Assembly (NCBI RefSeq): GCF_014524565.1
Contig: NZ_CP060139.1
Span: forward strand, 1,991,501 to 2,055,500
Source of the DNA: Croceimicrobium hydrocarbonivorans
GTDB lineage: Bacteria > Bacteroidota > Bacteroidia > Flavobacteriales > Schleiferiaceae
Direction of reading: 5' to 3'
Length of the DNA stretch: 64,000 nt
The notes under the pieces are model-generated. The model did not search any database. It was given only the letters and a program-made list of their open reading frames with translations, and was not told the DNA's origin. Positions 17,702 through 25,412 of the stretch are shown here, one piece after another (position 1 is the stretch's first letter; the number at the start of each line of letters is the position of its first letter). Position numbers and translations under genes: made by a program.

Positions 17702-19120
17702 CTAATTGTGAACTAATGTATCCACAAAACGCAGCAAATCGGCTTCTTGATATTTCGCAGCCGAAAATTGCATTCCAAGCGGTAATCCATTGCTATGAGT
17801 TGCCATCGGCAAGCTGATAGATGGAATGCCACTGATATTGGCGTGTACGGTAAAAATGTCTTCTAAATAAGCCTGCGTAGGATCATTTTGTTCTTGATCC
17901 AAGGCAAAGGCAGTGTGGGGTGTGGTAGGGGAGAAAAGTAGGTCGTAGTCCTTAAAAAGGGCTTCGGTTTTTTCTACCACCAGGCGGCGGGTTTTTTGCG
18001 CTTTGCCATAATAGGCATCGTAATAGCCGCTGCTAAGCACGAAAGTTCCTAGCAGGATACGGCGCTTAACCTCGGGGCCAAAACCTTCGGTGCGCGAAAG
18101 CTTATAGGTGCTCTCCAAATCATGGGCATTGGCACTGCGGTATCCGTAATGGATGCCATCATAGCGGGCCAAATTAGAGCTGGCTTCGGCAGTGGTAAGG
18201 ATATAATATACCGGTACCATATAGTCGAGCAGAGGGAAATCTACCGCTTCCACGGTATGACCATCAGCCTTTAGCTTTTCGATAATAGCTTCAGAAGCTT
18301 TGCGTACTTCGGGATCGAGATGCGCAGATTCCATAGCATTGCGGAAATAAGCAATGCGCTTTTTGCCAGGCTCGGGGGCCGATTGTACCGACTCTACCTC
18401 ACGTTTACTTACGGTATTGTCATAATTGTCTGCGCCGGCCATCACTTCGTAAAGGAGGGCAATATCTTCTACAGAGCGGGCAAAGGGACCAATTTGATCG
18501 AAGCTGGAGGCAAAGGCAATCAAACCATGGCGAGAAATTCGTCCATAGCTGGGCTTAAAACCATAAATGCCGGTAAAGCTGGCGGGTTGGCGAATAGATC
18601 CACCGGTATCACTTCCCAAGGAAGCTAAGCATAAGCCTGCCGCAACCGCAGACGCTGATCCACCGGAGCTTCCACCGGGAACCTTAGTAGTGTCGAGTGG
18701 GTTTTTAACCGGCCCATAAGCACTAAAGCGGTTAGAGGAACCCATGGCGAATTCATCGCAATTGAGTCGACCAATAATAATCGCATCCTCAGCTAAAAGT
18801 CTTTCGACTACCGTGGCGGAGAACAGAGATTGAAAACCTTCCAAAATTTTGGAAGCGGCCGAAACCTTATGGTCTTTGTAAACAATATTATCCTTGATTC
18901 CAATTACCATCCCTGCGAGTTTACCCGCAGTGCCGTGTTGCAATTTGGCGTCAATTACCGTGGCCCGGGCGCGAGCGTCGTGGGCATATACTTCTAAAAA
19001 GGCGTTCAGATCCTGATGCGCCTCAATTTTCTCCAGGTAATTTTCTACAAGCTGTACGCAGCTGATGGATTTTGATTCCAGGTCGGACTGGATTTCGGTC
19101 AGCTTCCGGTAATCTTTCAA
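17702..19120 (-). CDS. gatA: Glutamyl-tRNA(Gln)/aspartyl-tRNA(Asn) amidotransferase subunit A
   Basis: The 472-residue amidase-signature protein has the full Ser-cisSer-Lys triad: Lys76 in GIKDNI, Ser151 in PGGSSGGSASAV and Ser175 in SDTGGSIRQPAS. GatA releases ammonia from glutamine, which GatB uses to amidate misacylated tRNA; gatB and gatC are not in the window. The start is TTG at 19120, since the next in-frame ATG lies near residue 71, inside the catalytic region. It begins 10 nt after the tatA stop codon, so tatA-gatA are likely cotranscribed. Confidence 0.95.
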   Translation of the reverse strand: MKDYRKLTEIQSDLESKSISCVQLVENYLEKIEAHQDLNAFLEVYAHDARARATVIDAKLQHGTAGKLAGMVIGIKDNIVYKDHKVSAASKILEGFQSLFSATVVERLLAEDAIIIGRLNCDEFAMGSSNRFSAYGPVKNPLDTTKVPGGSSGGSASAVAAGLCLASLGSDTGGSIRQPASFTGIYGFKPSYGRISRHGLIAFASSFDQIGPFARSVEDIALLYEVMAGADNYDNTVSKREVESVQSAPEPGKKRIAYFRNAMESAHLDPEVRKASEAIIEKLKADGHTVEAVDFPLLDYMVPVYYILTTAEASSNLARYDGIHYGYRSANAHDLESTYKLSRTEGFGPEVKRRILLGTFVLSSGYYDAYYGKAQKTRRLVVEKTEALFKDYDLLFSPTTPHTAFALDQEQNDPTQAYLEDIFTVHANISGIPSISLPMATHSNGLPLGMQFSAAKYQEADLLRFVDTLVHN

Positions 19121-19130
19121 GGTATTGACT

Positions 19131-19322
19131 TTAGGATTTTTTCTCTGGCGATTCTTCTTTATCGTCTTCTTTCACAGCATCTTTAAACTCCTTAATGCCG
19201 CCACCAAGGCCGCGCATTAATTCAGGAATTTTACGTCCGCCAAAAAGGAGCAGTACCAAGGCAACAATCAGAATAATTTGCCAGGGACCTACAAATCCTA
19301 AAAACAGGCTTGCCATCGTCAT
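19131..19322 (-). CDS. tatA: Twin-arginine translocase subunit TatA/TatE
   Basis: The 63-residue product has the standard plan: a short N-terminal membrane helix (GPWQIILIVALVLLLFGG), a hinge at FGGRKIPELMRGLGGGIKEFK with the conserved Phe-Gly, an amphipathic helix, and a charged Lys/Glu tail. It forms the pore of the Tat system for folded, often cofactor-bearing, proteins. ATG codons at 19322 and 19316 are both possible. It is the first gene of the minus-strand unit tatA-gatA, and a promoter-like TACCTTTG lies 24 nt upstream. Confidence 0.95.
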   Translation of the reverse strand: MTMASLFLGFVGPWQIILIVALVLLLFGGRKIPELMRGLGGGIKEFKDAVKEDDKEESPEKKS

Positions 19323-19345
19323 TGTATCATGAATTTAATGAGCCG

Positions 19346-19353
19346 CAAAGGTA
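19346..19353 (-). promoter_or_regulatory. Candidate promoter -7 element of tatA-gatA
   Basis: The minus strand reads TACCTTTG, an exact fit to the Bacteroidota -7 consensus TAnnTTTG, 24 nt before the tatA ATG in a 170 nt divergent intergenic region. I see no clear TTTG -33 element at the expected distance, so this rests on the -7 box and its position. Confidence 0.4.
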
Positions 19354-19492
19354 TAAATTAAACGGCCCATTGGGGCGGCTTTCCAAGATCAGTATTTCGC
19401 CCTCAAAGAATTAGGGGACGAGAGGCCTTAAACACAATAAAACCTGCGCATACCTCGTCAATATTGTATCTTGCCAAACCAGAATCTAGAAC

Positions 19493-20188
19493 ATGGAAGA
19501 GATCATCAAGCTTCGCCAGATCAAGCGTGACTTTCCCCTTGGAAGTCAGGTGGTGAAAGTGCTGAAAGGCATTGATCTGGATGTGCGTCGCAATGAATAT
19601 GTGGCTTTAATGGGCCCCTCAGGATCCGGGAAATCGACCCTGATGAATTTATTGGGCTGCCTCGATACACCCAGCAGCGGCGAATACTGGCTAAACGGAA
19701 AGGATGTAAGCAAAATGACCGATAATGAGTTGGCGGAAGTGCGCAATTCAGAGATCGGTTTTGTTTTTCAAACCTTTAACCTTTTGCCACGTAGTACTGC
19801 GCTCGAGAATGTGGCTTTGCCTTTGGTTTATGCCGGAGCCAGTACCACCGATCGTCAGGCTCGAGCCGAAGAAGTTTTAAACTCCGTAGGTTTAAGTGAT
19901 CGCATGGATCACCGTCCTAATCAGCTCAGTGGTGGGCAGCGTCAAAGGGTAGCCGTGGCCAGAGCCCTGGTAAATCATCCCTCCATTATATTGGCGGATG
20001 AGCCCACGGGTAACCTCGATTCCAAAACCTCAGTAGAAATTATGAAGCTCTTTAGCGATATCCACGCTCGAGGGAATACCGTAATTCTGGTAACGCATGA
20101 GGAGGACATTGCTCAGCACGCACATCGCATTATTCGTTTGCGCGATGGTATGATCGAATCCGACGAAAAGAACGAACATGGATCTTAA
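19493..20188 (+). CDS. LolD/MacB-type ABC transporter ATP-binding protein
   Basis: The 231-residue single ATPase domain has Walker [10 protein letters not shown], the family's [19 protein letters not shown] segment, Q-loop [19 protein letters not shown], signature [15 protein letters not shown] and Walker [13 protein letters not shown]. This is the LolD/MacB/FtsE class, which drives mechanotransmission rather than solute import, for example lipoprotein release or peptide export. No permease gene is adjacent, so the partner is unknown. It overlaps the downstream SDR gene by 11 nt. Confidence 0.92.
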
Positions 20189-22416: not shown

Positions 22417-22818
22417 ATGAGTAATTACCTGATCGCATTTATTCCTTTTATCCTCTTCTACTTTTTGGCGAGGATGATGATGGATCGGGCTAATCGCAAA
22501 TTGGAACCCGAGAAGAAAGCCGAAATGGTGGACCTGTTTTCCAATCGATCACCCATGCGCTATGTTTGGTTGGCCCTCTTAATGGGCGGGCTATATGCAG
22601 TTTGGCAGGCAGAATTACTCGATCTTAATTATACCCTGGCCTTTTATTTTGCCGGCCTGATTGTGTACTCCGTTTTTTACGGTCGTAAATCAGTGAGCCT
22701 ATTAAAGGCCAACAATTTTCCGCCTGATTACATCCGTGCTTATCTCAGTGCTACCCTATTTCAATGGGCGGGAATCGCCTTTTTGGTCTTTGGGATGATA
22801 TTGGTACGCAATGGCTAA
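22417..22818 (+). CDS. Small unknown integral membrane protein
   Basis: Not recognised. The 133-residue protein has about four hydrophobic segments: YLIAFIPFILFYFLARMM, a central WLALLMGGLYAVW, LAFYFAGLIVYSVFYG and a C-terminal WAGIAFLVFGMILV. A basic loop (RANRKLEPEKKAEM) lies after the first. It starts 5 nt after the aldehyde dehydrogenase gene and overlaps the GNAT gene by 8 nt, so it belongs to the same transcript. Confidence 0.75.
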   Translation: MSNYLIAFIPFILFYFLARMMMDRANRKLEPEKKAEMVDLFSNRSPMRYVWLALLMGGLYAVWQAELLDLNYTLAFYFAGLIVYSVFYGRKSVSLLKANNFPPDYIRAYLSATLFQWAGIAFLVFGMILVRNG

Positions 22819-23275
22819 ACAGGAGCTCAGGATAGAAAGAACGAATTCCAAGAATCCGGATTTTATAAGCCTGGTCCAATTGCTGGATGCTGAGCTGGTT
22901 CATCGCGATGGACCCATGAATAGCTTTTACCATCAGTTTAATGGCATTGAAGATTTAAAGCAGGCTTTGCTTTTATACCAGGGAGATCAAGCCCTAGCCT
23001 GTGGTGCATTTAAAAACAAGTCTGCGGATACGGCGGAGGTCAAGCGTATGTATGTAGTCGAAAGCCAGCGCTCCCAAGGATTGGCCAGTCAATTATTAGG
23101 GGCCTTGGAAGACTGGGCCCGCGAATTAGCTTTAAAGCGATTGGTTTTGGAAACCGGAATCAATCAACCGGAAGCCATTCGCTTGTATGAGAAGAACGGC
23201 TATCAGCGGATTCCCAATTATCCGCCTTATGAAGGTGTGGAAACTAGTTATTGTTTTGAGAAAATATTGAATTAG
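22811..23275 (+). CDS. GNAT family N-acetyltransferase
   Basis: The 154-residue protein has the GNAT acetyl-CoA binding motif VKRMYVVESQRSQGLASQLLGALEDWA, where QRSQGLA is the Q/RxxGxG/A loop. The motif B region follows: RLVLETGINQPEAIRLYEKNGYQRIP. The acceptor is unknown. Its last 42 coding codons before the C-terminal Ile-Leu-Asn are repeated 1574 nt downstream in the same orientation (24712-24837), marking an insertion or recombination event at its 3' end. It is followed directly by a strong terminator hairpin. Confidence 0.9.
   Translation: MAKQELRIERTNSKNPDFISLVQLLDAELVHRDGPMNSFYHQFNGIEDLKQALLLYQGDQALACGAFKNKSADTAEVKRMYVVESQRSQGLASQLLGALEDWARELALKRLVLETGINQPEAIRLYEKNGYQRIPNYPPYEGVETSYCFEKILN
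23138..23263 (+). repeat. Direct repeat, copy 1 (3' end of the GNAT gene)
   Basis: This 126 bp segment inside the intact GNAT gene matches 24712-24837 without gaps. Hand alignment gives 8 mismatches in the first 51 nt, all synonymous except one Val/Ile change, and none in the last 75 nt (23189-23263). The sharp change from diverged to identical suggests a recombination boundary near 23188. Confidence 0.9.
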
Positions 23276-23277
23276 GA

Positions 23278-23310
23278 AGCTGTCTCATTTCTGAGGCAGC
23301 TCTTATTTTT
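23278..23310 (+). terminator. Rho-independent terminator after the GNAT gene
   Basis: AGCTGTCTCA and TGAGGCAGCT form a 10 bp stem with one G-U pair around a TTTC loop, followed by CTTATTTTT. It starts 3 nt after the GNAT stop codon and would end the 19493-23275 transcript. Confidence 0.85.
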
Positions 23311-23360
23311 ACGCTGTTTATTGCAAATCGGCCCCCATAGACATTGTAACCGTCATGGTT

Positions 23361-23489
23361 TTAAGTATCTCCTGCCAGCATTGACAGTGCTTTTTCTTTT
23401 TGAAAACCTCTTATTGAAAGTTCATCTTGAGCTAAAGATCCGGTAGAAAAGAATGTTACCGTTACGTAAATAAAATTTTTAAAACGCAT
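23361..23489 (-). CDS. Possible 42-residue secreted peptide
   Basis: An ATG-started minus-strand frame encodes 42 residues with a signal-peptide look: two basic residues, IYVTVTFFSTGSLA, then Gln-Asp, and a mature part of about 22 residues (QDELSIRGFQKEKALSMLAG and two more). It lies 37 nt downstream of the unknown envelope protein gene in the same orientation, within the GNAT-flanked insert. It could instead be the 5' piece of a decayed gene, because other frames remain open for a short way beyond its stop codon. There is no homology support. Confidence 0.3.
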   Translation of the reverse strand: MRFKNFIYVTVTFFSTGSLAQDELSIRGFQKEKALSMLAGDT

Positions 23490-23526
23490 AGTATATACCT
23501 TGCTTAGGAGACTTTATTGTAGGATG

Positions 23527-24060
23527 TCATAAGATATATTGAAATTTAAACTTCAATATTATTTTTCTTGATGTAGCCTGACCAAATGTTGGAAACCACT
23601 TCGCGTTTGATTGACTTTCAAAATGTGGTGAAATAAAGAAAACTAGGTTTTTATACTTAAACCCCATATCAATATCTGGCTCTAATCCTTGCATTGTAAG
23701 AAAGTACAAGCCTACAATGGGCTTAAAATTTGATTCTTCTTTTCTTCCAAACATAAAGCTGTACCCGAAAGACATTCGTGAGGTATAGACCCATGGTTGG
23801 GATACTAGTCTCCGAAATTCCCCGCGTCCTTCAGCAATAAATTCACTTGTTAGGACTCCATAATAATTTAAAGTGAACCCTTTGTATGATGCAGATACTC
23901 CGCTCCACATTTCTCTTTGATATGAATCAACGGATACAACGGGGACGGTTAAACCTAATCTCCAATCTTTGGTTTTAGCTTTTTGGCTATATAGAGATAT
24001 TGAAAGAAGGAATGATGCTACAAAAAGAATCGTTTTCTTTATCATTTTATTGATTTTCAT
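23527..24060 (-). CDS. Unknown exported protein in the GNAT-flanked insert
   Basis: Not recognised. The 177-residue product begins MKINKMIKKTILFVASFLLS, a typical signal peptide with cleavage near LYSQ. Short alternating strands follow (GLTVPVVSVDSY, GFTLNYYGVLTSEF, RMSFGYSFMFG), ending in IILKFKFQYIL. An eight-stranded outer-membrane barrel is plausible. Base composition looks more AT-rich than the flanking genes, and it lies between a terminator and a dnaB remnant. Both points suggest foreign or relocated DNA. It shares no obvious similarity with the other barrel-like proteins in the window. Confidence 0.65.
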   Translation of the reverse strand: MKINKMIKKTILFVASFLLSISLYSQKAKTKDWRLGLTVPVVSVDSYQREMWSGVSASYKGFTLNYYGVLTSEFIAEGRGEFRRLVSQPWVYTSRMSFGYSFMFGRKEESNFKPIVGLYFLTMQGLEPDIDMGFKYKNLVFFISPHFESQSNAKWFPTFGQATSRKIILKFKFQYIL

Positions 24061-24144
24061 GAGCTTAGTAAATGTGAAAATAATCGCAGATTAACTGTTA
24101 AGGAGTTTTCCCTGAATTTTAAAAAGGGCTTTTTCTGAGATTAA

Positions 24145-24711
24145 CTAGGGCTTTTTGCCTTTTCTCAAGTCTTTAAAGTCTTCTAAATCAAAAAATCGGG
24201 TGTACTGGCCTTCGAATCCCATTCGGTTGCGAACAAGGTCTCCATTTCGGTTTTTGGTAAGGATGTATTTCGCTTCACCATTAGTGGGTTCACTATGATA
24301 GTCGTCCCATTGTTCAATGTCGTAGTATTCGAGTCGATTCAAACACAATAGCACATCAGCGTCTTGATCAATGAAGCCTGAGTCTCTTAAATGGGATAGC
24401 ATAGGTCGCTTATGCCCACCTTGACTTTCTGCACTACGCAAGAGTTGTGAAAGTGCAATAACAGGGATGTCTAGTTCCTTGGCAACCATTTTCAATCCTC
24501 CAGAAATTCTTGATATCTCTTGCTCACGATTGGCATCTTTGTTTTTAATTCCAGACATCAGTTGCAGGTAATTTACAATTATGAGCTTTATCCCATATCT
24601 GGAATTCATTTGCTTTGATTTGGGAACCCTCAATTGTCACCTGAGCGGTGTCGCCTATGATTAGTTTAGAATTCCTGATCGGTTTTGTGGCTTCAATGGC
24701 GATAGCTTGTT
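24145..24711 (-). pseudogene. dnaB: Remnant of replicative DNA helicase DnaB (C-terminal part, frameshifted, 5' truncated)
   Basis: The minus strand encodes the DnaB RecA-like core: RYGIKLIIVNYLQLMSG (normally DYLQLM, with the Walker B Asp changed to Asn), EISRISGGLKMVAKELDIPVIALSQL, LRDSGFIDQDADVLL and ILTKNRNG. The long frame up to 24633 has no ATG. Upstream of about 24635 the homology continues in another frame (KPIRNSKLIIGDTAQVTIE, matching the usual IDDTA segment), so there is a frameshift. The homology then stops at the GNAT repeat, somewhere in 24705-24725. The N-terminal domain and Walker A are missing. It cannot make a working helicase and marks a past insertion or rearrangement. Confidence 0.88.
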
Positions 24712-24846
24712 CGATTGATTCTTGAAACCGGTATCAATCAGCCAGAAGCCATTCGTTTGTACGAGAAGAACGGCTATCAGCGGATTCCCAATTATCCGCC
24801 TTATGAAGGTGTGGAAACTAGTTATTGTTTTGAGAAAGTACTCTGA
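24712..24846 (+). pseudogene. Second copy of the GNAT 3' end (direct repeat, copy 2)
   Basis: In frame it reads RLILETGINQPEAIRLYEKNGYQRIP and continues as in the intact GNAT protein, ending Lys-Val-Leu-stop (TGA at 24844-24846) instead of Lys-Ile-Leu-Asn-stop. It has no start codon and a TAG lies three codons upstream of the homologous part. Positions 24763-24837 are identical to 23189-23263, while the preceding 51 nt differ at 8 sites. This looks like the tail of a diverged GNAT allele, left after recombination, rather than a recent tandem copy. Confidence 0.88.
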
Positions 24847-24911
24847 AATTTCCGGATACCTTTTCTAGCCAAGCATCATTGCTTAACTTCCTTGCCAAAT
24901 CAAAGTTTAAA

Positions 24912-25412
24912 ATGAAAGTATTTATCTGTTCGCTATTTCTACTGGCTTTTATGTTGCCCGCTGGGGCGCAAGAGTTTAAAGTACCTAAAGAACCCAAAAT
25001 GGAAAAGGCCGAAGACTATAAGGCCTATGAAGAAGATGTTTTGGCTTGTATCAATTGGCTTAGCAGTCATGGACCGGAGGAAGAAAGCAGCAAGCGAAAA
25101 AAGGCTTCTGCATTTTTGCTGATGTGGCTTACCGGAACCCCGGCAGTTAGCATGGAATTGCATGCTGAGATGATTGAGTATTCTGAGAAGAATCCAGAAC
25201 TATTAATCCTTTTTATGGGAGGATGGGCCAAATATGTTTTAGAAACAGGCGATAAAGATGCCACTGCAGGAAATGTAGCCGGATTGGAAATGGTAATCAA
25301 CTATTACAATCAGTATAAGGATCAGCTGTCTAAGGATCGTAGCCTTAAAAAGCTATCCAAGAAAATGGAAGAGGGCGAGCTCAAGACCTATGTTGAGGAA
25401 AGCTTAAACTAA
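24912..25412 (+). CDS. Unknown secreted alpha-helical protein
   Basis: Not recognised. From the ATG at 24912 the product has 166 residues, with a signal peptide (KVFICSLFLLAFMLPAGAQ) and then a Lys/Glu-rich, mainly helical body: PKMEKAEDYKAYEEDVLACI, HAEMIEYSEKNPELLILFMGGWAKYVL, and a C-terminal SLKKLSKKMEEGELKTYVEES. An upstream in-frame TTG (24879) was not used because it would bury the signal peptide. It lies just after the GNAT repeat and is followed by a bidirectional terminator. Confidence 0.75.
   Translation: MKVFICSLFLLAFMLPAGAQEFKVPKEPKMEKAEDYKAYEEDVLACINWLSSHGPEEESSKRKKASAFLLMWLTGTPAVSMELHAEMIEYSEKNPELLILFMGGWAKYVLETGDKDATAGNVAGLEMVINYYNQYKDQLSKDRSLKKLSKKMEEGELKTYVEESLN

What the first reader, a model, noticed from the sequence alone, without database searches (positions are those of the whole stretch)
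23138..24846. GNAT gene 3' end repeated on both sides of a 1.4 kb insert, with a sharp divergence-to-identity boundary
The last 126 bp of shared GNAT coding sequence (23138-23263) recur at 24712-24837 without a gap. The first 51 nt differ at 8 positions, almost all synonymous, while the next 75 nt are identical. A plain tandem duplication would diverge evenly. The pattern suggests that a diverged GNAT allele recombined inside the identical block, or that an element uses this gene end as its attachment site and rebuilds the gene on integration. The intact gene keeps its own terminator and the far copy carries a different stop codon. No integrase or transposase gene is present, so the agent is lost or was supplied in trans.
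Basis: partly seen in the sequence, partly recalled or inferred. Interest (0 to 1): 0.62.

Follow-up and report, generated by a model that had tools for sequence, protein, structure and literature searches.

The report
Decayed phage-like insert at gene end
A small leftover of what was probably a phage-like element sits at the end of an acetyltransferase gene in a bacterial chromosome; on inserting it gave the gene a new last few letters, a known kind of event seen here as a worn-down remnant.

Summary
23138-23263 recurs ungapped at 24712-24837: 8 differences in the first 51 nt, none in the next 75. The proposed test, an empty site, was found. The nearest relative, G001 (GNAT 95% identical), has one GNAT 3' end followed directly by the 24912 gene; window 22811-23263 joined to 24838-25412 aligns to it ungapped over 1028 bases at 96.0%. 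Of 6 genus relatives, the 3 with the gene (G001-G003) all have the empty arrangement.

One detail is reversed. The ancestral end (VL-stop) is on the FAR copy. The intact near gene carries an imported end (ILN-stop plus a hairpin). The diverged 51 nt also came with the insert.

The best reading is the remnant of a circular, probably phage, element that integrated in the GNAT 3' end, rebuilt the gene, and later lost most of itself. It keeps a truncated DnaB fragment (64% to DnaB of three viral contigs, 52% to the host's own) and an accessory gene with one strong match, in sister species G003. No integrase was found in it. The closest analogue is prophage e14 in icd. New member of a known kind; low interest.

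The parts
22811..23275 (+). intact GNAT acetyltransferase gene (154 aa); body from the host, last codons and stop (from about 23264) from the element
   Evidence: Pfam PF00583 1.7e-15; comparison with G001
23138..23263 (+). near (attL-like) copy of the repeat
23189..23263 (+). 75-nt block identical to 24763-24837; the crossover most likely lies in it (inference)
23264..24837 (.). net inserted DNA, 1574 bases relative to the G001 empty site (its frame can be slid within the identical block)
23277..23311 (+). terminator-like hairpin and T-rich run brought by the element, directly after the GNAT stop
   Evidence: fold of 23262-23318: -18.6 kcal/mol, z -3.78, 1 of 200 shuffles folds as well
23527..24060 (-). 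177-aa accessory ORF of unknown function; its one strong match among relatives is a gene in G003 (70% aa, 80% nt); a weak match (30%) in G005
   Evidence: no Pfam, PHROG or NCBIfam match
24145..24633 (-). C-terminal fragment of a DnaB-type replicative helicase, 5' part missing
   Evidence: PF03796 1.4e-43, phrog_19 2.1e-35, TIGR00665 positions 296-434 of 435; 64% to viral contigs
24634..24711 (-). probable continuation of the dnaB fragment in another frame, ending about where the far GNAT copy begins: inferred deletion junction
   Evidence: frames printed; homology judged by eye, inference
24712..24837 (+). far (attR-like) copy: first 51 nt from a diverged GNAT allele carried by the element, then the identical block; followed by the ancestral host stop and downstream DNA
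24912..25412 (+). host gene whose counterpart directly follows GNAT in G001, G002 and G003

Best explanation
A circular mobile element, most likely a temperate phage or phage-derived element, carried a copy of the 3' end of a related GNAT gene with its own stop codon and a terminator-like hairpin. It integrated by one crossover inside the shared sequence, so the host gene kept its body and received the element's last codons, while the host's original end was pushed to the far side behind the element's own GNAT piece (the insertion and the swap of ends are shown by comparison with the empty site; circularity is inferred from the layout). The crossover was most likely made by an integrase of the element (inferred). 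Afterwards an internal deletion removed most of dnaB and whatever lay between dnaB and the GNAT piece, presumably with the integrase (inferred from the cut dnaB). The two repeat copies were probably made identical over 75 bases by gene conversion, or the crossover itself was homologous with repair (inferred).
For: Ungapped empty site in G001: 1028 bases, 96.0%. The near copy is continuous with the host gene body, and the far copy's tail after the block equals G001's VL-stop and downstream DNA, while the near tail does not. The far copy's left arm differs from the near copy at 8 of 51, in 7 codons, 6 of them synonymous, so it diverged while coding. The element's piece plus the near tail reads as one open GNAT C-terminus with its own stop. 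The DnaB fragment is closer to DnaB of 3 IMG/VR contigs (64%), one of which also carries a terminase small subunit and a replication-protein match, than to the host's chromosomal DnaB (52%). G+C is 0.31-0.43 in 300-base windows inside the insert against 0.39-0.51 around it, ranges that overlap.
Against: No integrase, no structural phage gene and no intact relative of the element found. A GNAT 3'-end pattern found nothing in IMG/VR; a peptide search there gave 2 contigs, and in the one read (L083) the hit lies inside a complete 157-aa gene. Besides G000, none of the other 295 order genomes searched showed an adjacent C-terminal GNAT fragment. The 177-aa gene looks like an ordinary cell gene. 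No inverted-repeat integrase core stands out in the block. A 75-nt identical block is longer than a site-specific core needs. By counts alone the left arms are not decisive: near against G001 3 of 51, far against G001 7 of 51 (counted).
Confidence: 0.72

Rival explanations
1. Single homologous (RecA-type) crossover of a circular DNA without integrase, for example a plasmid or excised phage that happened to carry a diverged GNAT gene or gene end, followed by deletion.
For: The shared stretch is long (126 nt, 75 identical); identical blocks favour homologous crossover and gene conversion (general knowledge). The GNAT piece ends on its 5' side at the dnaB junction, so the donor may have carried a whole GNAT gene.
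Against: The element's tail right after the GNAT stop is a terminator-like hairpin with DNA behind it that is not in G001, the usual build of an attachment site in a gene end (general knowledge).
Confidence: 0.2
2. The whole arrangement arose in another lineage and was brought in by ordinary homologous transfer of a linear stretch.
For: A patch of very low divergence from G001 just downstream (0-3 per 100 over 24812-25411, against about 7 on average) suggests recent recombination near here.
Against: A similar low patch occurs elsewhere (0-5 per 100 over 19004-19703); near GNAT body and far flank both look like ordinary host sequence. It only moves the insertion to another lineage.
Confidence: 0.06
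3. Plain tandem duplication, or an assembly error.
For: Two direct copies exist.
Against: About 1.45 kb of DNA not found in G001 lies between them, the two tails differ, and divergence is uneven; single-contig genome.
Confidence: 0.02

Closest known systems
Prophage e14 in icd of E. coli
   Same: Element integrates in the 3' end of a protein gene, supplies a new 3' end, and leaves the old end as a duplicated fragment (163 bp in e14; passages of PMC6379469).
   Different: Target is a GNAT gene; no integrase left; 1.6 kb remnant instead of 15 kb; part of the repeat is perfectly identical while the outer part is diverged; probably a different phylum (inferred from the proteins; the window's taxon is not given).
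Genomic islands and integrative mobilizable elements that rebuild the 3' end of their target gene
   Same: Many reconstitute the gene they enter (passages of PMC12884075); most elements with a single tyrosine recombinase in the review use sites such as 3' ends of tRNA or protein genes, one repeat keeping the gene whole (passages of PMC5704250).
   Different: No recombinase, relaxase or other mobility gene recognised; direct repeats there are given as generally 8-60 bp, here 126.
Grounded (cryptic) prophages
   Same: Integrase absent, most genes gone, att-like repeats kept (concept in passages of PMC6379469).
   Different: Only one phage-type gene fragment is recognisable, so phage origin is likely, not proven.

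Membership tests
Element integrated at a gene 3' end with restoration of the gene (e14/icd type) | Empty site in a close relative | tested here: met
   G001, ungapped 1028 bases at 96.0%
Element integrated at a gene 3' end with restoration of the gene (e14/icd type) | Direct repeats of the gene end at both borders, gene restored in frame | tested here: met
Element integrated at a gene 3' end with restoration of the gene (e14/icd type) | Integrase gene in the element | tested here: not met
   Two ORFs of 60 aa or more in the insert, neither an integrase; the 7 PF00589 matches of the genome lie elsewhere; serine integrases were not searched genome-wide
Element integrated at a gene 3' end with restoration of the gene (e14/icd type) | Excised circle with attP | not testable with these tools
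   needs PCR or reads
Prophage remnant | Phage genes present | tested here: inconclusive
   One DnaB fragment, 64% to three viral contigs; no structural gene; all 973 annotated phage records with a match are below 60%, the 15 listed at 42-48%
Insertion sequence or transposon | Transposase gene; further copies | tested here: not met
   No transposase match for the insert's two ORFs; repeat is 126 nt of gene end; no other copy of the region in the genome at E <= 0.001

The most novel reading that the evidence does not exclude
The 1.6 kb unit is not a wreck but a miniature integrative element: two att-like gene ends, a terminator and a cargo gene, moved by an integrase supplied by another element in the same cell, trading 177-aa cargo genes between species of this genus.
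Probability: 0.04. Interest if true: 0.5.

Novelty: new member of a known kind. Interest (0 to 1): 0.22.

Why it matters
It adds a GNAT gene 3' end as a likely protein-gene attachment site and shows how such an event can be read from sequence after the mobility genes are gone: the synonymous, coding-type divergence of one arm and the swapped stop codons tell which side is host and which is element. It has little wider consequence.

Tried and rejected
Rejected: plain tandem duplication (DNA not found in G001 between the copies, uneven divergence). Transposon (no transposase, no second copy). Post-insertion decay of the far copy as the cause of the 8 differences (6 of 7 changed codons synonymous). 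Less likely: origin of the identical block from the diverged donor allele. G001 differs from it at 3 of 75 positions; about 12 would be expected at the near-far rate (8 of 51) and about 10 at the far-G001 rate (7 of 51) (counted, my estimate). This is suggestive only, the numbers being small.

Led nowhere: insert DNA against annotated phages, no match; 177-aa protein in IMG/VR, no relative; DnaB alignment in genome contigs, 15 loci at 39-50%; GNAT end in IMG/VR by peptide (2 loci, 55%) and by degenerate pattern (0); other adjacent GNAT 3' fragments among 296 order genomes, G000 included (only G000's; cut-off E 1e-12, so short diverged fragments would be missed); insert DNA in 88 family genomes, G000 included: 30 match, namely G000, the G003 gene and 28 weak ones, 26 of these in the dnaB part (at most 4 candidates per genome were scored); 12 kb around the G003 gene against G000 and G001 gave the gene itself (G000), a transporter-gene stretch and short pieces, no contiguous counterpart; inverted-repeat core near the block: the top hit is the hairpin after the stop, and 17 of 200 shuffles do as well. 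A neighbour of the G003 gene searched in 7 genus genomes gave only 46%-type family members outside G003. Paper searches: e14/icd, gene-restoring elements, acetyltransferase gene as prophage site in Bacteroidetes; no paper on integration in a GNAT 3' end showed in these listings, which is not proof that none exists.

Full report
What was checked. The window lies in G000, a single 4.04 Mb contig. The repeat is real: 23138-23266 and 24712-24840, 129 nt, 93%, E = 4.8e-49 in a self-comparison of the window and the only pair printed at E <= 1e-8 (first 60 rows examined). Within 126 nt, 8 differences fall in the first 51 and none in the next 75 (Fisher p = 0.0005 with a boundary chosen after the fact). 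The differences touch 7 codons, 6 of them synonymous.

Empty site. A GNAT search of 39 genomes, G000 included, matched 17; of the 6 genus relatives, G001, G002 and G003 carry the orthologue (95, 66 and 75% identity), G004 has only a weak match, and G005 and G006 have none. In these 3 the single GNAT 3' end is followed directly by the counterpart of the 24912 gene (alignment). Joining 22811-23263 with 24838-25412 gives 1028 bases that align to G001 without a gap at 96.0%. So 1574 bases were inserted in the window's lineage, or lost in G001 by exact recombination between repeats; the absence from G002 and G003 as well makes insertion the simpler reading.

Which part is whose. After the identical block, the far copy continues with the same VL-stop and downstream sequence as G001, while the near gene continues with ILN-stop and a hairpin (-18.6 kcal/mol, z -3.78). 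Before the block, the near copy is continuous with the host gene body, and the far copy is preceded by insert DNA. Counts alone are weaker: near against G001 3 of 51, far against G001 7 of 51 (counted). Thus host = near left + far right, and element = far left + near right. The element's two pieces read through as one open GNAT C-terminus, RLILETG...CFEKILN-stop.

The identical block. If the element's allele had been as diverged over the whole 126 nt as over the first 51, about 12 differences would be expected in 75; there are 0, wherever the crossover was. The block differs from G001 at 3 of 75 positions, which fits host-type sequence better than donor-type, though the numbers are small. So the block is probably of host type in both copies, through gene conversion between the direct repeats or repair during a homologous crossover. 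This step is inferred.

Content of the insert. Two ORFs of 60 aa or more lie between the repeats. One, 162 aa on the minus strand, is the C-terminal part of a DnaB helicase (PF03796; TIGR00665 positions 296-434 of 435). It is 64% identical to DnaB of three IMG/VR contigs and 52% to the host's chromosomal DnaB at 923028. Of eight ORFs scanned from two of those contigs, five are of L046 and include matches to a terminase small subunit, an HNH endonuclease, replication-initiation proteins and DnaB. The upstream continuation of the fragment appears in another frame and ends about where the far GNAT copy begins (by eye), so a deletion probably joined dnaB to the GNAT piece. The second ORF, 177 aa, has no family match; in 59 genomes searched, G000 included, it has a 70% match in G003 and a weak one in G005. 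At the DNA level, in 88 family genomes, the only strong match besides the own genome is G003 at 80%. There it lies among genes that look ordinary in the ORF list of 19 kb (by eye; no family scan was run on them). No integrase or transposase was found in the insert; the 7 PF00589 matches of the genome lie elsewhere, and whether one served this element is unknown.

Mechanism and place among known things. The anatomy is that of e14 in icd, where the element supplies the end of the gene and leaves a 163-bp old end behind (passages of PMC6379469). Reconstitution of the target gene is described for many genomic islands (passages of PMC12884075) and integrative mobilizable elements (passages of PMC5704250). 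Here no integrase was found, so membership in a named integrase-bearing class is not claimed. Phage origin rests on one gene fragment. Site-specific against homologous crossover cannot be decided from this genome; I favour the former because a gene end with its own terminator followed by unrelated DNA is how attachment sites of this kind are built (general knowledge).

Verdict. Interest is low.

Noticed in passing
24812-25411: Divergence from G001 drops to 0-3 per 100 bases here against about 7 per 100 on average; a similar low patch (0-5 per 100) lies at 19004-19703. Recent recombination between the lineages or strong constraint.
   Followed up: partly
22811-22910: The 5' end of the GNAT gene is unusually diverged from G001 (15 of the first 100 bases), while the rest of the gene is close (6 or fewer per 100).
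   Followed up: no
about 23360-23490, minus strand: A reading frame of about 43 residues with a signal-peptide-like start (by eye) lies between the hairpin and the 177-aa gene (frames); could be a remnant of another cargo gene.
   Followed up: no
L048:9564-10115 (G003): The G003 homologue of the 177-aa gene sits in a setting that has no contiguous counterpart in G000 or G001.
   Followed up: partly
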